A stretch of 64,000 bases of DNA, from NCBI RefSeq assembly GCF_018310535.1, contig NZ_CP074103.1, positions 124,001-188,000 of the forward strand, read 5' to 3'. The DNA is from Streptomyces mirabilis. GTDB lineage: Bacteria; Actinomycetota; Actinomycetes; Streptomycetales; Streptomycetaceae. The position numbers and the translations under genes were made by a program. Each line of letters opens with the position of its first letter. Position 1 is the stretch's first letter. Of the stretch, positions 17,837 to 37,473 are shown piece after piece. The notes under the pieces were generated by a model. That model searched no databases. It was not told the origin of the DNA and saw only the letters and a list, made by a program, of their open reading frames with translations.

Positions 17837-17844
<8 letters not shown>
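17641..17844 (+). pseudogene. C-terminal remnant of an alpha/beta hydrolase
   Basis: From about 17641 the frame reads LEVVVIEKTGHMPMLERPDA and ends a recognisable hydrolase C-terminus near VSRFVDTLGD. GHMPMLERP carries the catalytic His of alpha/beta hydrolases, and everything before it is absent. It abuts the broken L,D-transpeptidase fragment, so a deletion joined two genes. The frame then runs through a terminator to a stop inside the convergent copA gene. Confidence 0.65.
17769..17808. terminator. Bidirectional terminator after copA
   Basis: Perfect 16-bp stem (17769-17784 with 17793-17808) and an 8-base loop, 29 bases beyond the copA stop codon. Confidence 0.85.
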
Positions 17845-20113
<2,269 letters not shown>

Positions 20114-20228
20114 GGGCGTATCTCCAGGGGGAGGCCGGGACGTACGGCGTCCGTATCAGCGGGGCGGTACGTCCCGGCGCGGGGAGGGAATGCGCGTGAT
20201 GCCGGGGTGGGAAGCCCCGGAGAGGCCG

Positions 20229-20522
20229 TCAGGCCTGGCCGACGAGCTCGTAGCCGGCCTCGTCGACGGCGGCCCGGACGGCCTCCTCGTCGAGCGGCGC
20301 GGCGGAGGTGACGGTCACCTCACCGGTCTTGGCGACGGCCTGGACCGCGGTGACGCCGGTCAGAGCGGAGATCTCCTTCGAGACCGAGCTCTCGCAGTGG
20401 CCGCAGGTCATGCCGGAGACCTTGTAGACGGTGGTGACGCCGATGCCCTGGACGTCGGCGGTCGTGCCGGAGCCGCAGGAACCGCCGCCGCAGCAGGAGC
20501 CGGAGGTCTTCTGGTCGGTCAT
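20229..20522 (-). CDS. copZ: Copper chaperone CopZ (heavy-metal-associated domain)
   Basis: 97 residues from ATG 20522. A Cys-rich leader (GSCCGGGSCGSG) precedes an HMA domain with the metal site GMTCGHCESSVS (CxxC at residues 40 and 43) and the usual betaalphabetabetaalphabeta pattern to the end. It carries Cu+ in the cytoplasm to CopA, which is encoded next. The additional N-terminal Cys cluster may bind further copper. A CsoR-like box lies about 85-100 bases upstream. Confidence 0.92.
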   Translation of the reverse strand: MTDQKTSGSCCGGGSCGSGTTADVQGIGVTTVYKVSGMTCGHCESSVSKEISALTGVTAVQAVAKTGEVTVTSAAPLDEEAVRAAVDEAGYELVGQA

Positions 20523-20604: not shown

Positions 20605-20621
20605 ATACCCCCCCAGGGTAT
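20605..20621. promoter_or_regulatory. CsoR-type operator before copZ-copA
   Basis: ATACCCCCCCAGGGTAT: inverted ATACCC/GGGTAT arms, as in actinobacterial CsoR boxes. It lies upstream of copZ on the minus strand. Confidence 0.75.
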
Positions 20622-20676: not shown

Positions 20677-20689
20677 CTAAGTCCCTTAA
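20677..20689. promoter_or_regulatory. Candidate CTAAG-N3-CTTAG operator
   Basis: CTAAGTCCCTTAA has a perfect left half and a 4/5 right half, 34 bases before a start codon with a strong ribosome-binding site at 20723. Confidence 0.55.
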
Positions 20690-20722
20690 TGGTGGGGCGC
20701 ATGTACCCCACGAGGAGGCTTC

Positions 20723-24329: not shown

Positions 24330-24743
24330 TCAGCGCACGGTTAGAGTGCCCTTCATGTTCGAATGGAAGGTGCAAACGAAGGGGTAACTGCCGGCCTTGG
24401 ACGGGGCGGTGAAGGTTCCGGACTTGCCGCCGGAGATGCTCCCGGTGTCGAACGCCTTGCCCTCCGTGGCGGTCACCGTGTGCGCGGCGGAGTCCTCGTT
24501 CACCACCGTGATCTTCTCGCCTGCCTTCACCGTCAGCGTGGACGGGCTGAAGGCGAAGTTCTTCATCGTGATGCGTACCGCGCCAGTGCTCGCCGACGGT
24601 GATGCGGGGCTGGAGGACGCGGGGCTGGATGTGGCCGAAGGGGAGTTGTCTTTCCCGCTGGAGCAGGCCGGGACCAGCAGAAGAGTCGCGGCCGCCGCGA
24701 GCAGCAGGGATGCGGTGCGTCGGCGGTGGGATGAAGGCGACAT
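24330..24743 (-). CDS. Cupredoxin (plastocyanin-like) copper-binding lipoprotein
   Basis: 137 residues from ATG 24743. A lipoprotein signal ends at LLLVPAC, followed by a Ser/Pro/Ala linker and a plastocyanin/azurin-type domain. The type 1 copper ligands are visible: His in EDSAAHTVTA, then Cys, His and Met in VCTFHSNM. The protein should bind copper outside the membrane as an electron carrier or copper store. Longer upstream starts (up to 24908) would read through a non-homologous segment. It probably shares a transcript with the unknown gene downstream. Confidence 0.85.
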   Translation of the reverse strand: MSPSSHRRRTASLLLAAAATLLLVPACSSGKDNSPSATSSPASSSPASPSASTGAVRITMKNFAFSPSTLTVKAGEKITVVNEDSAAHTVTATEGKAFDTGSISGGKSGTFTAPSKAGSYPFVCTFHSNMKGTLTVR

Positions 24744-24939
24744 CGGAGCGGCCCTTCGGAGGTCGGAGTACGGAGGGGCGTAAGGCGGCCCGGCGGGCGA
24801 CCTCGCCGGTGTTGAGGATGGCGGCTCCCATGGAGTGGGTGTGGGAGCCGTGCCGGGCATGCAGTCCTTTGAGGGACAGGGAGTTGACAGCGACCCATAC
24901 CTCGACAATGACGGCTATGAGGGTTAGCAGCAATACCAT
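24744..24939 (-). other. Possible membrane-peptide fragment upstream of the cupredoxin gene
   Basis: From ATG 24939 a frame reads a hydrophobic segment (LLLTLIAVIVEVWVAVNSLS) followed by LKGLHARHGSHTHSMG, rich in His. After this it merges into a shadow frame of the cupredoxin gene. A similar translation (ILVWVNLRNLRLKG) occurs near 26100. It may be a truncated His-rich small membrane protein. Confidence 0.3.
24915..24927. promoter_or_regulatory. Candidate CTAAG-N3-CTTAG element
   Basis: CTATGAGGGTTAG matches the element (CTA left, TTAG right) 172 bases upstream of the cupredoxin start at 24743. It overlaps the possible fragment starting at 24939, so only one of the two may be real. Confidence 0.35.
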
Positions 24940-25239: not shown

Positions 25240-25945
25240 GTCCCGGGCGTCTTCCCGTTCCGCCCCGCGGACACGGCCGGAGCGATCCAGCGGGTAGTAG
25301 AACAGCGACGCCACGGTGTTGATCGCGGCCACGACCGCCCGCCAGGCGTAGCCGCCACACTGAACGCCTCCAGCTTTCCCAGGAAGACTGCGGTCGGCGG
25401 GGTCCCCACCAGGCCGAGCAGACACACGACCAGGGCGTCGGCGAGGGCCGGTCGCTGACGCGCCAGCCCCCGGTAATCGTCGATGTTGTGGAGCCCGGGG
25501 AGAGCGCAGACCACGGCGAAGGCGCCGAGATTCGTCAGCGCGTACCCGGCCAGATAGAACAGCGGCGCCTGCTGGGCGAGATCCGCGCGCCTGGCCACGG
25601 CCACCGGCATCAGCAGGTATCCGACCTGGCTGATCGTCGAGTATGCGAGGAGGCGCTTCACGTCCTGCTGGAAGAAGGCCGCGAGGTTGCTCAGGGTCAT
25701 GGACGCGGCGGAGAGCACGGCCACCAGAGCCGCCCACGGCAACGTCCGTACCGGACAGCGCCTCGGTCCCAAGACGGTACAGGGCGGCGAAGGCACCGAT
25801 CTTGGGGAGGGTGGTGAGGAACGCCGCGACCGGGGGAGCACTGCCCTGGACCGCGTCCGGCACCCAGAAGTGGCCCGGCACGCCGCCGGCCTTGAAGGAT
25901 GCTCCGCCCACGATGAGCGCGGCGATGCGGCCCTGCTGGTCGATC
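25240..25945 (-). pseudogene. nuoN-like pseudogene (NADH-quinone oxidoreductase subunit N)
   Basis: Three consecutive pieces in different frames spell a proton-translocating NuoN/MrpD-type subunit: SFKAGGVPGHFWVPDAVQGS, then NLAAFFQQDVKRLLAYSTIS and GYALTNLGAFAVVCALPG, and finally AVVAAINTVASLFYY. The ends are missing, and at least two frameshifts lie between the pieces (near 25780 and 25345). The gene is therefore dead. No other nuo genes are nearby, so this is a stray fragment. A 12-base direct repeat (GTCGATCACCTG twice, about 25938-25962) lies at its 5' edge. Confidence 0.8.
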
Positions 25946-26020
25946 ACCTGGTCGATCACCGCGGTCTCGGGACGGTGAGGGTGGGGGCCTCCGCAGCGGC
26001 TTGGCCCGCCAACCTTACGG

Positions 26021-26033
26021 CTAAGAGCCTTAA
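26021..26033. promoter_or_regulatory. Candidate CTAAG-N3-CTTAG operator of the cyclodipeptide operon
   Basis: CTAAGAGCCTTAA is perfect on the left and 4/5 on the right. It lies 109 bases before the first gene (26130) of the block that continues into the cysteine-synthase-like, MFS and cyclodipeptide synthase genes. Confidence 0.55.
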
Positions 26034-26129
26034 CGTTGAGCCCTGGTCCCTTGAGTCTGAGGTTGCGCAAGTTCACCCATACGAGGATGAGTACTGGCAT
26101 ATAGTGATGTTCCGCTTACGATCAGTAGC

Positions 26130-26591
26130 ATGCCGCAGGAATCGGCCGACTGCGCGGGGGCGCGCAAACCGGCCCTCGCTCTCCTCGTGGGCCTGGTGCT
26201 GATGCTCATGGCCCACGCTGTCGCGTGCGCCGTGCACCCGGCCGAGAGCCACGTTCATGCTGCGGCGGCCGTGTCCTTGGAGCAGGCGGAATCCGGTTCG
26301 GACGTCCCGCTGCTCGTTTCGGACGCATTGACCTGTTCGGCGTCCCACGGAGCGGACGAGCACCCGGGGCATGGCGTCGCGTGCTGTGACCCCGCCGACT
26401 GGCCCGCCGACCTGCGGGTGCCGGCCGGGGCGCTGCTCCTGGCCCTCCTGCTGCTCGGTCTGCTGCCGTTGCGCCACCGCACGGAGGATCCCGCGACGTC
26501 CGGCGCGCCGCCGGGACGAGGCGATACCGCCGGAGCGCCCTGCCTCACCGGACTCCACCTGCTGCGCCTCGTCTGCGTCAGCCGTACCTGA
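26130..26591 (+). CDS. Small Cys/His-rich membrane protein
   Basis: 153 residues. Helix 1 (about residues 14-34, [20 protein letters not shown]) is followed by an extracytoplasmic loop with [10 protein letters not shown] and [20 protein letters not shown], and helix 2 (about residues 101-116, [16 protein letters not shown]). The Cys and His clusters suggest metal or thiol binding. Family unknown; the arrangement is similar to that of DUF6153 proteins in this window but the sequence differs. It begins 109 bases after an operator-like element and about 100 bases before the cysteine-synthase-like gene, so it probably leads that operon. Confidence 0.68.
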
Positions 26592-26688
26592 CGGTGCCCC
26601 GCCTGGCACGCATTGCCGGGCGTCCCGACACCCCCCACCCGTACGGCACAGACACGCGGCCTCATCGTGGGCCGCGAGAGGACTCCAC

Positions 26689-27828
26689 ATGAGCACGGCC
26701 CTGCGCAGCATCCCCTCGCGCGACATCACCTCATTCCTCGCAGCACACGAACTCCCCGACCCTGCGGGCGCACCGCGCCGGTCACCCGCCGGCATGGTCG
26801 GCAACACCCCCGTTCTATGGATCGGCGAACCCTTCAACCTCTCCGGACGCGGCTTCTGGGCCAAGCTCGAAGGCGCCAACCCCGGCGGCATCAAGGACCG
26901 CCCCGCACTCCACATGGTCGCCGCCGCCCGAAAGCGGGGCGACCTCGCACCGGGTGCTCCGGTCATCGAGTCCACCAGCGGCACCCTCGGCCTGGGCCTC
27001 GCGCTGGCCGGGATCACCTACGGCCACCCGGTCACCCTGGTCACCGACCCCGGGATGGAGCCGCTGATGGTGCACCAGCTCCGTGCTCTCGGCGCGCACG
27101 TGGACGTCGTATCAGAGCCTCACCCGGTCGGAGGCTGGCAGGAGGCGCGCAGGCAGCGCGTGCGCGAACTGCTCGCCCGTACACCCTCGGCGTGGTGCCC
27201 CGACCAGTACAACAACCCCGACAACGTCGCCGCGTACGCGCCGCTCGCCCTCGAACTCATCGTCCAGCTCGGCCGGATCGACGTCCTGGTGGCGGCGGTC
27301 GGCACCGGCGGGCACTCGGCCGGCATCGCCCGCACCCTGCGCACCTTCAACCCGGAGTTGAAGCTCGTCGGCGTCGACTCGGTGAACTCCACCGTCTTCG
27401 GCCAGCCCGCGGGCCCGCGCCTGATGCGAGGCCTCGGCAGCAGCATCCACCCGGGCAACGTCGACCACGCGGCCTTCGACGAGGTCCATTGGGTGGCTCC
27501 CGGAGAAGCGGTGTGGACCTGCCGCCAGCTGGCCCGCGGTCACTACGCCAGCGGCGGTTGGAGCGTGGGCGCGGTCGCGCTCGTGGCGAACTGGCTGGCT
27601 CGAACGGAATCCGAACGCACCCGCATCGCAGTGATCTTCCCCGACGGCGTCCACCGCTACTGGAACACCGTCTACAGCGACGGCTACTGCCGTACCCACG
27701 GGCTTCTGCGCCGCTTCCCCGCGGACCAGCCGGACGAGATCGCGCACCCTGGCGAGTACGCGGTCGAACGCTGGACCCGCTGCACCAACATCACCGCGCC
27801 CGTCGTGGCGGAGGGGACGGCGCGATGA
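26689..27828 (+). CDS. PLP-dependent cysteine-synthase-like enzyme
   Basis: 379 residues from ATG 26689 (AGAGGA ribosome-binding site). The fold-type II PLP signature is intact: [16 protein letters not shown] with the Schiff-base Lys at residue 69, the substrate loop STSGTLGLG (residues 95-102), the DQYNNPDN stretch and the phosphate-binding VGTGGHSAG. The C-terminal 130 residues include [20 protein letters not shown]. It catalyses beta-replacement on serine, O-acetylserine or a similar amino acid. Its coupling (ATGA) to an MFS transporter and a cyclodipeptide synthase suggests that it makes a special amino acid or thiol for that product rather than housekeeping cysteine. A decayed paralogue lies at 36328. 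Confidence 0.88.
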
Positions 27829-29105
27829 ACTCCCTTGCCGCGCAGTTCCGTTCGTTCAACGGATGCATCCGGCTGCTGATGGTCCAGCAGTTCACCATCA
27901 ACACCGCCTTCTACATGCTCATGCCCTACCTGGCCGTGCATCTGGCCAACGGGCTGGGCATGGCCGCCTGGGCGGTCGGCCTGGTGCTGGGGGTACGCAA
28001 CTTCACCCAGCAGGGCATGTTCCTCGTCGGCGGCACGCTCGCCGACCGGCTCGGCTACAAGCCCTTGATCATGGCCGGGTGCGTGCTGCGTACCATCGGC
28101 TTCGGTCTGCTCGGTTTCGTCGATTCGCTGCCCGCGCTCGTCGTGGCGTCGGCGGCCACCGGCTTCGCGGGGGCTCTGTTCAATCCGGCGGTACGGGCCT
28201 ATCTCGCGCAGGAAGCGGGGGCGCGGCGAGTGGAGGCCTTCGCGACCTTCAACGTCTTCTATCAGGCAGGGATGTTCGTCGGGCCGCTGGTCGGACTCGC
28301 CCTGCTGACAGCCGACTTCGGGCTGGTCTGCTCCGTGGCTGCGGTCCTGTTCCTGGCCCTGACGGTCATCCAGTTCCGCATGCTGCCCGATCGTGAGGGC
28401 ACTCCGTCGGCCGAACCCGGTGGCGTGCTGGCCGACTGGCGCACCGTCGTTCACAACCGGCCGTTCCTGCTCTTCTCCGCCGCCATGATCGGCTCGTACG
28501 TCCTGTCGTTCCAGGTCTACCTCGCGCTTCCCTTGCAGGCGCATCGGGTGGCCCGGGACAGCGGCGACGCGGTGACCACCGCCCTGTTCGCACTCTCCGC
28601 CGCGGTGGCTGTGGTGGGGCAGCTGAAGATCACGGCGTGGGCCCGGGCGCGGTGGACCTCGCAGCGCGCCATCGTCTACGGCATCGCGGTCATGGGTGTC
28701 GCCTTCGTGCCGTTGCTGGTCGGGCCTGGAACGGTGGCGGGAGGTTCCAGCGTTATGGGCTGGGGCATGGCGCTGGCGCCCCTGTTCGCGGCGGTCGCCC
28801 TGCTCGGACTGGGGACGGCCGTGGTCTACCCGTTCGAGATGGACACGGTCGTATCGCTCGCGGGCGGACGGCTGGTCGCCACGCACTACGGGCTGTACAA
28901 CACCGTCTCCGGACTCGGCATCACTCTGGGGAACCTGGCCACCGGGGCTGTCTGGGACGCCGCCGAACGTATGGGGCACCCGGAGCTGACGTGGTGGGCG
29001 CTCGCGGCGACGGGCGCCCTCTGCGCCGGATGTGTCGGCCTGCTGGCGCGGTCCGGCCGTCTGACCGCCCGGTCCGAGCCGGAACTCGCGGTGGTGACCT
29101 CATGA
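27825..29105 (+). CDS. MFS transporter, probable exporter of the operon product
   Basis: 426 residues from ATG 27825, which overlaps the preceding TGA. Twelve helices are expected. The family A-motif region reads [18 protein letters not shown], and [19 protein letters not shown] and [20 protein letters not shown] are strongly conserved in the second copy at 35092. Drug:H+ antiporter-type MFS proteins fit this layout. Its position between the PLP enzyme and the cyclodipeptide synthase makes product export or self-protection the likeliest role; uptake of a precursor is possible. Confidence 0.87.
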
Positions 29106-29905
29106 AGGCGGGCGCGACGCACACAACGGGCCCTTCGGCAGCCGGACTTGTCGCGACTCCGCTGAGCACTGCGTGTGCCGCCGTACTGTCGCGTGCTGAG
29201 CACGCGTGCATCGGCGTCAGCCCTTTCAACAGCTACTTCTCGGTCGCACGGATCCGGCAGGTGGCCGTTTGGGCTTGTCAGCGGTTCTCACGCGTCGACT
29301 TCTTCGTGCCGGACGGTCCGAGCGCGTACACGCTGGAGGCACTGGGCTACTCGCCGGCAAAAGCGGAGTGGAAGGCGCGTCGGCAGGGCCAGTACACCCG
29401 GAACAAGATCCGAGTGGCCCTGCGGGGCGTGGATGAGGGCGCGAGCCGGACCCGGGTCCTCGGGTGGGCGGAGCTGCAGGGGGTGGCGGCCTTCAGCCGA
29501 CTGCACGCGGAGGGACATGCTCTCTATACGCGGGACGAAGGGTTCCGAGCCGCCTGCCGGGAAGCAAGCGGCTGGGTCCTTGCCGGAAGGCTCCCGGAGG
29601 GGCGCGAGCCGGACGAGGCTCAAATGGCCTGTGCGGTGCGCTACTTGCTCGCCGAGCTGCCGCTGTTCCTCGACACCCCGGCCATCGTGGAGGCCGAGTC
29701 ATCGGTGTTCTGCTACCACCGGCCGCCGGCGTTCCTGCACCGCCTCTACGCACGCGAACTCGTACGGCATCCCGGGCCGGGCCAGGGATTCGCTGTGATC
29801 ACGCCGACCGACGTGGACGGCACCGAGTCACAGGGGGTGTTGGTACCCGCTGCCCCACCCCTGCACAGCGCTGATCATCTGACTCCACAACCCGCTGGCC
29901 TGTAG
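29102..29905 (+). CDS. tRNA-dependent cyclodipeptide synthase (NYH type)
   Basis: 267 residues from ATG 29102, overlapping the MFS stop codon. The CDPS fold is recognisable from EHACIGVSPFNSYFSVARI, where Ser40 is the expected acyl-accepting nucleophile and Asn43 marks the NYH subfamily. The basic tRNA-binding helix follows (YTRNKIRVALRG), then YLLAELPLFLDTP (Tyr181, Glu185) and VFCYHRPPAFLHRLY (Tyr205, His206). All residues needed for catalysis in AlbC-type enzymes are present. CDPSs condense two aminoacyl-tRNAs into a diketopiperazine. The C-terminal 40 residues are an extra disordered tail. The amino acids used cannot be predicted by eye. A terminator follows. Confidence 0.9.
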   Translation: MKAGATHTTGPSAAGLVATPLSTACAAVLSRAEHACIGVSPFNSYFSVARIRQVAVWACQRFSRVDFFVPDGPSAYTLEALGYSPAKAEWKARRQGQYTRNKIRVALRGVDEGASRTRVLGWAELQGVAAFSRLHAEGHALYTRDEGFRAACREASGWVLAGRLPEGREPDEAQMACAVRYLLAELPLFLDTPAIVEAESSVFCYHRPPAFLHRLYARELVRHPGPGQGFAVITPTDVDGTESQGVLVPAAPPLHSADHLTPQPAGL

Positions 29906-29922
29906 CACGCCGACGAGCACAC

Positions 29923-29951
29923 GTAGCGCCGTCCGTAGTGGGCGGCGCTAC
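29923..29951 (+). terminator. Terminator of the cyclodipeptide synthase operon
   Basis: 12-bp stem with one G-T pair (29923-29934 with 29940-29951) and a 5-base loop, 18 bases after the stop codon. Confidence 0.75.
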
Positions 29952-29987
29952 GCACAACAGGTCGACACGACCGTGTCTCCTATATAG

Positions 29988-34201: not shown

Positions 34202-34963
34202 ATGAACTCCGTCACCGTCCGCGCGCTGCTGGTACGCGGAATGCTCGCGGGCCTGGCCGCGGGGCTGTTGGCCTTCGGGCTCGCCTATCTGATCGGCGAG
34301 CCCGGCGTGAACGCGGGCATCGCCTACGAGGACGCCCACACCCACGATCACGGCATGGAACTGGTCAGCCGGGCCGCGCAGTCCACCACCGGCCTGGCCA
34401 CCGGGGTGCTGGTCCTCGGCACGGCGGTGGGCGGGATCGCCGCGTTGGCGTTCTGCTTCGCCCTGGGGCGAGTCGGCCGATTCGGCGCGCGGGCGACCAC
34501 CTTGCTGGTCGCCGGCGGCGCCTTCGTCACCGTCTACCTGGTGCCGTTCCTGAAGTACCCGGCCAACCCGCCGGGGTCCAGCGACCCTGACACCATCGGA
34601 AAGCGGACCACGCTGTACGTCGGGATGATCGCCCTGACCGTGCTGGTCGCCCTCGGCGCGGTGATCCTCGGCCGCCGCCTGGCCGGGCGGATCGGCAACT
34701 GGAACGCCGCTGTCGCCGCGACCACCGCCTTCATCGGGGTCATCGCCGTGGCCATGGCGTTCCTGCCGGCGGTCAACGAGACGCCCAAGGACTTCCCGGC
34801 CACCGTGCTGTGGCAGTTCCGCCTCGCCTCACTCGGCATCCAGGCGCTGCTGTGGGCCTCGTTCGGCGTGGTCTTCGGTTTCCTCGCAGAACGGGTCCTG
34901 TCGCCGCACCCCGCGCGCCCGGCCCAGGCGGCTGCGGCCCCTGGGGTGGCGTCGGCCGCCTGA
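34202..34963 (+). CDS. cbtA: Cobalt transporter subunit CbtA
   Basis: 253 residues, about six helices. After helix 1 the extracytoplasmic loop has YEDAHTHDHGMELVSRAAQS, whose His/Asp cluster fits metal capture and is typical of CbtA. Later conserved segments are YPANPPGSSDPDTIGKRT and the helix with FLPAVNETPKDFPATVLWQF. It forms the transporter with CbtB, 19 bases upstream. A strong terminator follows. Confidence 0.92.
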   Translation: MNSVTVRALLVRGMLAGLAAGLLAFGLAYLIGEPGVNAGIAYEDAHTHDHGMELVSRAAQSTTGLATGVLVLGTAVGGIAALAFCFALGRVGRFGARATTLLVAGGAFVTVYLVPFLKYPANPPGSSDPDTIGKRTTLYVGMIALTVLVALGAVILGRRLAGRIGNWNAAVAATTAFIGVIAVAMAFLPAVNETPKDFPATVLWQFRLASLGIQALLWASFGVVFGFLAERVLSPHPARPAQAAAAPGVASAA

Positions 34964-34978
34964 TCGGCTCAGGTAGAG

Positions 34979-35012
34979 GGGCCTGTGCCGGGGGCGCGAC
35001 CGGCACAGGCCC
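34979..35012 (+). terminator. Terminator of cbtBA
   Basis: Perfect 13-bp stem (34979-34991 with 35000-35012), 8-base loop, followed by TTT. Confidence 0.85.
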
Positions 35013-35091
35013 TTTGCGCGTGGTGGTGGTGGCGCACGGATGCCGTCCTTGCTTCGCAGGAGGTGCCCGTCCTGGACCGCGGCTCGCCCGC

Positions 35092-36331
35092 TCATACGGT
35101 GACGGGCTGCGGCCGACGTACGGTGAGTCGGCCGCTGTGTGCCAGCGCCGCGATCGATGTCGCGCAGGCGAGCCCGGTGGCGGGCAGTCCTGCCCAGGTC
35201 AGCCAGAGTGCGTTGTGCCGCGCGGCGAAGTCCCAGAGGGGCGCACGTGGCGAGGTTGCCGAGGCCGGAGACGGTGTTGCAGAAGCCGTAGTGCGTGGCG
35301 ACCGGGCGGTCGCCGGACAGGGTCACGACGGTGTCCATCTCGAACGGGTAGACCACTGCGCTGCCCGCCGCGAGCAGGACGACGGCCGCGACCAGGGCCA
35401 CGAGTACCGCCACCGACGAGCCGCGCGGAGCGAAGGCCAGTGGCAGGAAGGCCACCCCCATCGCTGCCAGCCCCCGCACCAGCGCCTCGCTGGGACTCCA
35501 GCGGCGTTTGGCCAGGCCGGTGAGGTGCACCTGTCCGACGACGGCGACCGCGGCCGAGACGACGAACAGCCCGCTCGTGACCGCCGTGCCGTTCGCTCCC
35601 AGCGCGTCGGACGCGGCGAGGGGGAGCGCCAGATACACCTGGAAGGTCAGGACGTACGAGCCGATCATCGCGGCGGAGAAGAGCAGGAAGGGCCGGTTGG
35701 CCACGACTGTGCGCCACTGGGCCAGCACGCCCTCGCCGCCGGTGCCGGCCGTGTGGCCGCGGCGCGCGGGCAGCGACCGCCACTGCAGCAGCGTCAGCAC
35801 GGCGAAGATGGCGGCGGCCACGGTGCACACGAGGCGGAAGTCGGCTGCCAGCAGGGCGAGTCCGACGAGCGAGCCGAGGAGCATGCCGGCCTGGTAGTAG
35901 ACGTTGAAGGTGGCGAAGGCATCCACGCGCCGCTCGCCCGCCTCGGCGGCCAGGTAGGCGCGTACGGCCGGGTTGAACAGCGCGCCCGCGAAGCCCGTGG
36001 CGGCGGAGGCGGCGATCAGGGCGGGCAGGTTGTCGACCCAGCCGAGCAGGCCGAAGCCGACGGCGCGCAGGAGGCAGCCGGTCATGATCGGGGCCTTGTA
36101 GCCGAAGCGGTCGGCGAGGGTGCCGCCGATCAGGAACATGCCCTGCTGGGAGAAGTTCCGTACGCCCAGCACGAGCCCGACCGCCCACGCGGCGAGGCCG
36201 AGTTGACCGGACAGGTGGGCGGCGAGGTAGGGCATGAGCATGTAGAAGGCGAGGTTGATGGCGAACCGGTTGGCCATCAACAGCCGTACGGGGGGCGGGA
36301 AGGAGCGGGTCTGGCGCCACAGGTGCTTCAT
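35092..36331 (-). pseudogene. MFS transporter, decayed second copy
   Basis: From ATG 36331 the protein closely follows the intact copy at 27825 ([60 protein letters not shown]). Near 35240 an extra base shifts the frame inside NLAT-CAPL; the remaining helix continues in another frame (WDFAARHNALWLTWAGLPAT) to a stop at 35092-35094. A short stretch (ITLG) before NLAT is also missing. Only the last helix is affected, so a partly functional protein or a sequencing error cannot be excluded. Confidence 0.85.
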
Positions 36332-37473
36332 CGGGCGGCCTCCACGAGCGCGGGTTCGCCGACGGCGCCAGCATCGCGAGCGGGTCGATCACCTGGGTGC
36401 AGCGTGTCCAGCGGGACACGACCCGTTCGCAGGGGTGGCCGATCTCGTCCGGATCGTCGGCGGGCAGGTGACCGAGCAGGCCGTGGTCCCGGCAATACGT
36501 GTCGTCGAAGACGGTGCCGACGTACCGCTGCGGGCCGTCGGGGAAGATCGCGACAATCCGCTCCTCTGCGGGCACGGTGCGGGGCCAGCCAGCGGGCCAC
36601 GAGAGGGACGGCGCCGACGCTCCAGCCGCCGGTGGCGTAGTGGTGGCGTGCGAGGGTGCGGGCGGCCCAGACGGCTTCGGGGGCGGCGACCCCAGTGGAC
36701 CTCGTCGAAGAGGTCGTAGGCGACGTTGCGGGGGTAGATGCTGCTGCCCAGCCCGCGCATCAGTGGGGGGTGCGGCGGGCTGGCCGAAAATGGTCGACCC
36801 GGTGGTGTCCACGCCGACGACCCGCAGGCGGCGAAAGAAGCCGCGCAGGACGGAGGCGATGCCGGCGGAGTGGCCGCCGGTGCCGACGGCGACGACGAGG
36901 GTGTCGATCCGGCCGAGCTACGAGTTCGTGGGCGAGCGGGGCGTAGGCGGCGACGTTGTCGGGGTTGTTGTACTGGTCGGGGCACCAGGCGTCCGGGTGG
37001 ACGGCCAGGAGTTCCTCGACGCGGTCGCAGCGGGCCTGCTGCCAGCCGCCGGTGGGATGCGGGGTGGTGACCACGTCGACCCCGGCGCCGTACGCAGTGA
37101 GCAGGCCCGTCATCAGGGGTTCCATGCCGGGGTCGGTGACGACAGTGACCGGGTGGCCGTAGGCGGAGCCGGCCAGGGCCAGGCCGAGGCCGAGGGTCCC
37201 GGACGTCGACTCGACGATCCGGGCGCCGGGCAGCAGCTGCCCGCGCTCGCGGGCGGCCCGGACCATGTAGAGGGCGCTGCGGTCCTTGATGCCGCCGGGG
37301 TTGTGGCCTTCGAGTTTGGCCCAGAAGCCGCGGCCGGCGGCGGTGAAGGGCTCCCCGAGCCACAGGACCGGGGTGTCGCCGACCAGTCCGGCGGGCGTGT
37401 GGGTCGGGCGCTTGGCCTCGGCCAGCAACTGTGCCGGAAAGGCAGGGACGGTGAGGGTGTCGAGGTGGTTCAT
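36328..37473 (-). pseudogene. Cysteine-synthase-like enzyme, decayed second copy
   Basis: From ATG 37473 the N-terminal half matches the copy at 26689, including [16 protein letters not shown] and [14 protein letters not shown]. The frame breaks near 36920, 36775, 36690, 36570 and 36380, but each piece still spells homologous sequence ([76 protein letters not shown]). The stop codon overlaps the MFS start (ATGA) exactly as in the intact operon. No cyclodipeptide synthase gene follows this copy. Confidence 0.9.

What the first reader, a model, noticed from the sequence alone, without database searches (positions are those of the whole stretch)
26021..29951. Candidate metal-linked cyclodipeptide pathway: PLP enzyme, exporter and CDPS in one operon
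Seen: three genes joined by ATGA overlaps encode a cysteine-synthase-like enzyme with its PLP Lys, an MFS transporter and a CDPS with all catalytic residues (Ser40, Asn43, Tyr181, Glu185, Tyr205, His206). A Cys/His-rich membrane protein precedes them and a terminator follows. Known: CDPSs make diketopiperazines from aminoacyl-tRNAs, and cysteine-synthase-like enzymes make special amino acids in some metallophore pathways. Inferred: the operon makes and exports a cyclodipeptide-derived small molecule, possibly metal-binding, because it sits inside a copper/cobalt island behind an operator shared with metal genes. I know of no described pathway with this exact trio.
Basis: partly seen in the sequence, partly recalled or inferred. 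Interest (0 to 1): 0.85.

Follow-up and report, generated by a model that had tools for sequence, protein, structure and literature searches.

The report
Copper-linked cyclodipeptide synthase operon
In Streptomyces an enzyme that builds tiny ring-shaped dipeptides belongs to a group that usually sits at the head of copper-export operons; in this genome it has instead joined another metal-associated gene cassette, so these bacteria may make a small ring peptide as part of their response to metals.

Summary
The trio is real: SbnA/CysK-type PLP enzyme (26689-27828), MFS (27825-29105) and NYH-type CDPS (29102-29905), with ATGA overlaps and intact CDPS catalytic residues. It is not one conserved pathway but a hybrid of two modules that occur apart. 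(1) The CDPS clade is tied to copper export. In 21 of 21 distinct close loci (20 Streptomyces, one Nocardia) it adjoins a MerR gene and in 20 of 21 CopA lies within three genes. In 15 of 15 loci of one layout a CueR-type operator stands directly before CDPS-copA; this genome holds such a copy too. Four Streptomyces relatives at about 47-49% identity head BlaI-M56 operons. Controls: 16 P450-linked and 10 permease-linked CDPSs have no labelled metal gene within six genes. (2) PLP-MFS is a widespread pair (22 of 22 loci); a CDPS follows only in the window (1 of 21 readable). The 'Cys/His membrane protein' is a probable leader ORF with a conserved C-terminus (20 of 22 PLP loci). The window operon itself lacks the CueR operator, and copZ lies 5.6 kb away. 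I infer metal-responsive cyclodipeptide production; induction, product and copper binding are untested. No paper on this turned up in the open-access searches made.

The parts
26021..26037 (+). 17-nt element CTAAGAGCCTTAACGTT, second copy at 20677-20693 near copZ; candidate regulatory site
   Evidence: pattern framed after seeing both copies, so weak.
26114..26132 (+). Conserved GCTTACGATC..GCATG just before the leader start, a possible -10 region of a leaderless transcript
   Evidence: Single match in the window; similar stretches stand before leaders of L105-L107. Function inferred.
26130..26591 (+).
   Evidence: No Pfam match; conserved C-terminus across PLP loci. Start codon assumed.
26656..26681 (+). 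Hairpin GCGGCCT/GGGCCGC ending directly before Shine-Dalgarno GAGAGG of the PLP gene
   Evidence: helix of 7 against a shuffle mean of 4.7; 5.5% of shuffles as good. Suggestive only.
26689..27828 (+). SbnA/CysK-type PLP enzyme (PF00291)
   Evidence: below the cut-offs of the SbnA, CysK and CysM equivalog models.
27825..29105 (+). MFS transporter, nearest NCBIfam model MdtH (below cut-off)
29102..29905 (+). Cyclodipeptide synthase, NYH type, catalytic residues intact
29922..29952 (+). 13-bp hairpin after the CDPS without a T run
   Evidence: z -3.66; not listed by the terminator scan.
34829..37473 (-). Second, broken PLP-MFS pair (PLP copy frameshifted; MFS frame open), no CDPS
   Evidence: Inverted repeats against 26785-28920; frames; PF07690 in the MFS frame.
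17837..20522 (-). copA (17837-20113) and copZ (20229-20522) of the window
   Evidence: copA passes the Cu-ATPase model TIGR01511, 530 bits against 397; copZ labelled by heavy-metal-domain similarity to relatives.
20606..20620 (-). CsoR/RicR-type box TACCCCCCCAGGGTA before copZ
   Evidence: consensus recalled.

Best explanation
The CDPS is a working member of a copper-associated CDPS clade. In relatives a MerR-family sensor (nearest to CueR) activates a promoter that transcribes CDPS and then copA, so a cyclodipeptide would be made from aminoacyl-tRNAs whenever the Cu(I) efflux pump is induced. In this genome a sister form of that CDPS has been joined by a translationally coupled 4-nt overlap to a separate, metal-associated cassette: leader ORF, SbnA/CysK-like PLP enzyme, MFS. 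The operon would be controlled through the exported Cys/His-rich leader ORF, whose translation and conserved C-terminus gate the downstream genes, and the MFS exports a small molecule. Shown: gene families, operator and linkage in relatives, clade structure, purifying selection on relatives, C-terminal conservation of the leader. Inferred: metal induction, the leader mechanism, the cargo of the MFS. Unknown: the cyclodipeptide, and whether it binds copper, protects, signals or poisons rivals.
For: MerR adjoins the CDPS in 21 of 21 distinct loci and CopA lies within three genes in 20 of 21. CueR-type operator directly upstream in 15 of 15 layout-A loci; in 392 Streptomyces genomes it occurs in 7, five of them with an intact CDPS. 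Named plasmid records are annotated MerR - CDPS - heavy-metal ATPase. Six more distant CDPSs lie within three genes of BlaI and M56 genes, one next to CopC. Controls: 0 of 16 P450-linked, 0 of 10 permease-linked and 0 of 3 other CDPSs have a labelled metal gene within six genes. The window CDPS and five database proteins form a clade (100/99), sister to the 20 Streptomyces CopA-linked rows (92/96). dN/dS 0.15-0.39 in 11 pairs of relatives, none including the window gene. Leader C-terminus in 20 of 22 PLP genes, 14 of 16 TauE-like genes and 4 of 4 Streptomyces BlaI-linked CDPS genes; 0 of 108 genes in six control families.
Against: The window operon has no CueR-type operator or CsoR-type box upstream, and no labelled copper-gene family within six called genes. 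G302 has MerR-operator-copA without a CDPS and G177 an internally deleted CDPS, so copper export does not need it. The clade is sparse: 5 of 392 Streptomyces genomes. The MerR has Cys at the CueR Ser77 position and, in layout B, is nearest to CadR/PbrR, so the inducing metal is unsure. In Streptomyces only 3 of 22 PLP loci have a labelled metal gene within three genes, and the two ATPases among them score as Cd/Zn type, not copper. Linked loci share descent, so they are not independent. Nothing shows that the product has to do with copper.
Confidence: 0.5

Rival explanations
1. Passenger model: metal islands on large plasmids collect genes; the CDPS makes an ordinary cyclodipeptide and travels with copper genes without a role in metal physiology. 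In the window it was appended to PLP-MFS by chance.
For: The clade is sparse (5 of 392 genomes); it is missing or deleted in two operator-bearing operons; the trio was seen only in this genome (1 of 21 readable PLP loci).
Against: Three operon layouts put the CDPS beside metal regulators, 15 of 15 layout-A copies are the first gene behind the CueR-type operator, and relatives are under purifying selection.
Confidence: 0.25
2. Copper-ligand model: the cyclodipeptide or a derivative binds copper, and the PLP product and MFS belong to the same metallophore-like pathway.
For: Copper linkage of the CDPS clade; SbnA is the best NCBIfam and PDB sequence match of the PLP enzyme, and SbnA serves a siderophore pathway.
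Against: P1 pocket CGFPWLFF is nearest to Pro- and Leu-accepting motifs, not to a ligand-rich residue; PLP-MFS and CDPS are not linked elsewhere; no SbnB-like partner was labelled in the operon.
Confidence: 0.15
3. tRNA model: the CDPS matters by draining charged tRNA and slowing translation during metal stress, the cyclodipeptide being a by-product.
For: No tailoring enzyme or dedicated exporter was seen in the MerR-CDPS-copA layout; CDPSs consume aminoacyl-tRNA (established knowledge).
Against: Speculative; the conserved P1 pocket of the copper clade is equally well explained by a product role.
Confidence: 0.05

Closest known systems
Rv2275-type cyclodityrosine synthase with a neighbouring P450
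   Same: CDPS fold, NYH catalytic residues; 2x9q is the best PDB sequence match of the window CDPS
   Different: P1 CGFPWLFF instead of the cYY motif VG[VI]TMLFN; no P450 beside it; copper genes beside its relatives instead
CueR-copA operon
   Same: MerR divergent from copA and a CTTGACC-dyad operator in relatives; MerR nearest to CueR in the PDB
   Different: A CDPS is inserted as first gene; MerR has Cys where CueR has Ser77; the window operon lacks the operator
CruR and CutF copper-sensing leader ORFs (PMC9426467, PMC9973294)
   Same: Small exported-type ORF with metal-binding-type residues and a conserved C-terminus upstream of metal genes
   Different: No DUF2946 match, no CXXC and no RAPP or proline-rich end in the window leader; end is CVSRT
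SbnA and CysK-type enzymes; mycobacterial CysK2 (recalled)
   Same: SbnA is the best NCBIfam model and best PDB match
   Different: Below every equivalog cut-off tested; TSGTLG in place of SbnA's TSGNLG; no CysK2 sequence was available to compare

Membership tests
Cyclodipeptide synthase (CDPS), NYH subfamily | Family model and fold | tested here: met
   PF16715 240 bits, TIGR04539 268 bits; model matches solved CDPSs
Cyclodipeptide synthase (CDPS), NYH subfamily | Catalytic Ser and N-Y-H residues | tested here: met
   SNYEYH at the AlbC positions
Cyclodipeptide synthase (CDPS), NYH subfamily | Makes a cyclodipeptide from aminoacyl-tRNAs | not testable with these tools
   Needs expression and LC-MS
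cYY group (Rv2275-like) | P1 motif VG[VI]TMLFN | tested here: not met
   CGFPWLFF
cCX group | P1 motif like that of CDPS 102, VGYPSIFF | tested here: inconclusive
   4 of 8 positions match; the group consensus is a logo I could not read
SbnA (TIGR03945) | Score above the family cut-off | tested here: not met
   237 bits against 349.95
CysK2, O-phosphoserine-dependent S-sulfocysteine synthase | Sequence kinship and that activity | not tested
   No CysK2 sequence was at hand; the activity needs enzymology. Kinship is recalled from operon order.
CueR-regulated operon | CueR-type operator upstream of the window operon | tested here: not met
   0 matches in the window with up to 3 mismatches; met in 15 of 15 layout-A relatives
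CruR/CutF (DUF2946) leader ORFs | DUF2946 domain | tested here: not met
   No Pfam match at E 0.001 for the window leader; one relative, L113, weak and below cut-off, E 0.041
CruR/CutF (DUF2946) leader ORFs | CXXC (CutF: CxxxC) and a RAPP or proline-rich C-terminus | tested here: not met
   Window leader sequence has CC but no CXXC and ends CVSRT; features
Copper leader ORF (works like) | Translation of the ORF gates the downstream genes in response to copper | not testable with these tools
   Needs reporter fusions

The most novel reading that the evidence does not exclude
Actinobacteria make a cyclodipeptide as a dedicated part of the copper response: CDPS and CopA form one regulon, and the product is a copper ligand or copper-protective metabolite. 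The window shows a second route of metal control, a family of exported leader ORFs with C[VI]SRT, GVWRT or CVWRQ ends that sense metal during translation and head many metal operons from Streptomyces to Mycolicibacterium.
Probability: 0.2. Interest if true: 0.88.

Novelty: new variant of a known kind. Interest (0 to 1): 0.64.

Why it matters
The CDPS overview I read in part (PMC5816076) lists six CDPS-dependent pathways known at its date, none described there as part of metal defence. A CDPS as first gene of a CueR-type copA operon would give cyclodipeptides a physiological role and makes a direct test simple: add copper and look for the product. The leader-ORF pattern, if right, would extend copper sensing by nascent peptides (CruR, CutF) to actinobacteria with a different C-terminal code, and offers a testable reading of the small exported proteins in front of their metal operons, perhaps including the mycobacterial lpqS-cysK2 operon (recalled).

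Tried and rejected
Cyclo(Cys-Cys) as product, with the PLP enzyme feeding cysteine, was my first idea after reading that a cCC group exists. P1 matches the cCX member CDPS 102 at only 4 of 8 positions, so I dropped it as a prediction.

A conserved RNA fold of the leader is only weakly supported: RNAalifold gave an unfavourable covariation term (+1.69), and the helix next to the Shine-Dalgarno is longer than the shuffle mean in 26 of 30 leaders but beats its own shuffles at 5% in only 6 of 30.

'Second copper cassette' for PLP-MFS was softened to 'metal-associated' on re-checking: 3 of 22 PLP loci have a labelled metal gene within three genes, and the ATPases of L111 and L118 pass the Cd model but not the Cu model. 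I lowered the main confidence from 0.55 to 0.5 for this and for the lack of close copper genes in the window.

A CsoR/RicR-type box before the operon: none found in 25900-26135; one before copZ (consensus recalled).

Rows dropped before counts: L086 and L088 (same contigs as L007 and L004) and, in the tree only, L094 (short call). L012 and L013 have identical CDPS proteins and L006 and L015 come from one strain; both pairs were kept. In the leader count L116 is masked by N and L090 ends in CRWQI; both count as misses.
Full report
What is there. The genes were re-read and their coordinates fixed: leader ORF 26130-26591, PLP enzyme 26689-27828, MFS 27825-29105, CDPS 29102-29905, all on the plus strand. 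PF00291, PF07690 and PF16715 are all above Pfam cut-offs; the leader has no match. The CDPS aligns without gaps to AlbC residues 23-235, so AlbC positions plus 3 give window positions. All six catalytic positions are intact (SNYEYH) and a predicted model (mean pLDDT 88.8) falls among solved CDPSs. The window is G000:C2:124001-188000 on a 518-kb second contig, probably a large plasmid (inference).

The CDPS clade is tied to copper. A pattern scan of the genome-contig collection with the window CDPS returned 16 loci, 15 Streptomyces and one Nocardia; such a scan reaches close relatives only. All 16 have a CopA relative in the fetched stretch, and none a PLP or MFS relative by tblastn at 1e-8. 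Adding this genome's second CDPS copy (L027), two Streptomyces plasmids (L125, L126) and two genus genomes (L085, L087), and dropping the duplicates L086 and L088, gives 21 distinct loci. MerR adjoins the CDPS in 21 of 21 and CopA lies within three genes in 20 of 21; in L085 the next gene is an ORF with a HAD-hydrolase domain only, as a P-type ATPase fragment would have. Layout A (15 loci): MerR divergent from CDPS-copA. Layout B (6 loci, including Nocardia): CDPS and MerR convergent, then copZ-copA.

The operator. Upstream of CDPS in layout A stands CTTGACCTTGCCCTAAGGGCAAGGTTTTAGC with small changes, a long-spacer dyad promoter like that known for CueR (E. coli copA sequence recalled). The exact search pattern occurs in 15 of 15 distinct layout-A loci, once each. 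Layout B has related but divergent stretches; Nocardia has CTTGACCTTCCCCTTCAGTGGAAGG. In 392 Streptomyces genomes the pattern occurs in 7 and its reversed control in none of them. Five of the 7 have an intact CDPS downstream, G302 has none and G177 an internally deleted remnant. One layout-A MerR (L027) scores best with CueR (96 bits, cut-off 147), one layout-B MerR (L006) best with CadR/PbrR (113, cut-off 151); CueR is the best PDB match of the first. The MerRs have Cys at the position of CueR Ser77 (numbering recalled) and a Cys near residue 126. Two CopA proteins tested, L027's and the window's, pass the Cu-ATPase model. Copper is likely, but the inducing metal is not proven.

Wider relatives and controls. 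At about 47-49% identity four Streptomyces CDPSs stand directly before BlaI-type repressor and M56 genes (L090, L096, L097, L127), one with CopC in the same run; two from another family lie within three genes of BlaI and M56 (L145, L146). Ten CDPSs (9 in the tree) are linked to an NCS1 permease, a rhodanese and a thioredoxin, 16 to a cytochrome P450 (two tested, PF00067) and three to other genes; none of these 29 has a labelled metal gene within six genes. A tblastn of CopA against 19 short loci of other CDPSs, of 2.4-3.7 kb, found nothing. In the tree (61 rows) the P450 group stands apart (100/100). The window CDPS groups with five database proteins (100/99), sister to the 20 Streptomyces CopA-linked rows (92/96); deeper branches are open and the tool warns of long branches. 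Eleven CDPS pairs, none with the window gene, have dN/dS 0.15-0.39. In the genus sample 5 of 392 genomes, this one included, hold a CDPS at 59% or more identity to the window, so the clade is sparse.

Specificity. Pocket positions are those of PMC5816076 (abstract, sections 10-12 and passages read). P1 is CGFPWLFF in the window and in 20 of 21 MerR/CopA-linked loci (L009: CGFPWIFF), CGFPGLFF in the four Streptomyces BlaI-linked loci, and CGFPMLFF in seven of ten permease-linked ones; window P2 is AWVGRPA. As a check, P450-linked L104 reads VGVTMLFN, the paper's cYY motif, and L103 differs from it at one position. The closest published P1 motifs in the table I read are LGLPWLFF (proline) and LGFPWLVF (leucine), each 6 of 8, then CGHPWLLY (proline), 5 of 8. 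The product therefore stays open. The three contexts differ at AlbC position 119 (W, G, M) and may make different products.

The PLP-MFS pair. Of 392 Streptomyces genomes 234 have a PLP relative at 1e-60. I read 22 PLP loci: the window, L090 and 20 picked among the best hits. MFS follows in 22 of 22, with a 4-nt overlap in 21. The gene after MFS can be read in 21, and it is a CDPS only in the window. Relatives 83-90% identical (L105-L107) hold no CDPS in the fetched stretch. The metal context of the pair is uneven: in 3 of 22 loci a labelled metal gene lies within three genes (L111, L117, L118), and the L111 and L118 ATPases pass the cadmium-family model but not the copper one. In L112 a cation-efflux gene follows. 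On the plasmids I opened, copper or heavy-metal genes stand close by in Rhodococcus (multicopper oxidase, CopC), Mycolicibacterium gilvum (copper-binding protein), Gordonia (P-type ATPase) and Streptomyces sp. CdTB01 (ArsR, P-type ATPase), but not in M. aubagnense. The order small exported ORF, CysK-like enzyme, MFS recalls the RicR-controlled lpqS-cysK2-Rv0849 operon of mycobacteria (recalled; the papers I tried were not held; passages of PMC11361707 on CysK2 do not mention copper). A second, broken copy lies on the minus strand of the window.

The leader ORF. The body of the small ORF varies but its end is conserved: CVSRT in the window group, GVWRT and CVWRQ in others. A scan for an upstream ORF ending x[VIL]x[RQ][TQVSLIFC] within 260 nt gave 20 of 22 PLP genes, 14 of 16 TauE-like genes (DsbD_2 plus cupredoxin domains in the one tested), 4 of 59 CDPS genes (all four Streptomyces BlaI-linked ones, ending VIRT), 1 of 30 CopA, and 0 of 23 MFS, 13 BlaI, 12 M56, 33 MerR, 17 P450 and 10 permease genes; over all genes above 150 aa 64 of 997. 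The pattern was framed after seeing examples, and duplicated loci were not removed from this count. Further hits precede DUF305 and carbonic anhydrase genes, one of each in the window. Rhodococcus and Mycolicibacterium leaders end LCINRC, FCISRR and LCISRR; none was seen in Gordonia L171. CruR (abstract and passages of PMC9426467) and CutF (passages of PMC9973294) are precedents for copper-sensing leader ORFs, but this leader fails their defining motifs. A hairpin next to the Shine-Dalgarno is suggestive, not proven.

Against the reading. The window operon itself has no CueR-type operator or CsoR-type box upstream, and no labelled metal gene within six called genes; copZ starts 5.6 kb away. 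A cupredoxin-like gene (24330-24908) is closer.

Reading. The window operon is best seen as two metal-associated modules joined: leader-PLP-MFS, plus a CDPS whose relatives stand behind CueR-type operators with copA. I therefore expect metal-responsive cyclodipeptide production. What the product does is not known; binding copper is one possibility among several.

Print check. Searches for cyclodipeptide synthase with copper and P-type ATPase (0 papers), with cysteine synthase, gene cluster and Streptomyces (1, passages read), with copper (29 papers, 28 listed, listing read only), with MerR and heavy metal (2, listing), and diketopiperazine with CueR, copper and Streptomyces (3, listing) showed no report of this association in the open-access library; DUF6153 gave 0 papers. 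Subscription papers were not searchable.

Noticed in passing
window:13093-14279 (-), window:31831-33041 (-): DUF305 and carbonic anhydrase genes are each preceded by a small ORF with a conserved-looking end (LSVLRL, LQIFRC), like the leader of the PLP gene; DUF6153-type leader before DUF305.
   Followed up: partly
L003, L014, L015, L016, L027, L085, L087, L125, L126, L148: TauE-like (DsbD_2-cupredoxin) genes of copper islands follow small ORFs ending LCVSRT or LCVLRT.
   Followed up: partly
L028, L089, L091-L095, L098-L100: A further CDPS clade is linked to an NCS1 permease, a rhodanese, a thioredoxin, a subtilase and LysR genes; function unknown.
   Followed up: no
L149:7908-8183: In G177 the CDPS between the operator and copA is reduced to an in-frame remnant of its two ends; in G302 (L148) it is absent.
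   Followed up: partly
window:29102-29905: Three cysteines (C25, C36, C152) are invariant in 44 aligned CDPSs of this group; C36 lines pocket P1.
   Followed up: no
window:14966-16239 (+): A BlaI/CopY-type repressor and a peptidase gene stand side by side, the same pair that follows the CDPS in L090, L096, L097 and L127.
   Followed up: no
window:34829-37473 (-): A second PLP-MFS pair with a frameshifted PLP gene; this genome has four PLP matches, the three listed places all on contig C2.
   Followed up: partly
MerR genes beside CDPS or copA, L001-L016, L027, L085-L088, L125, L126, L148, L149: These CueR-like regulators carry Cys at the CueR Ser77 position and one near residue 126, an unusual sensor site.
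   Followed up: partly
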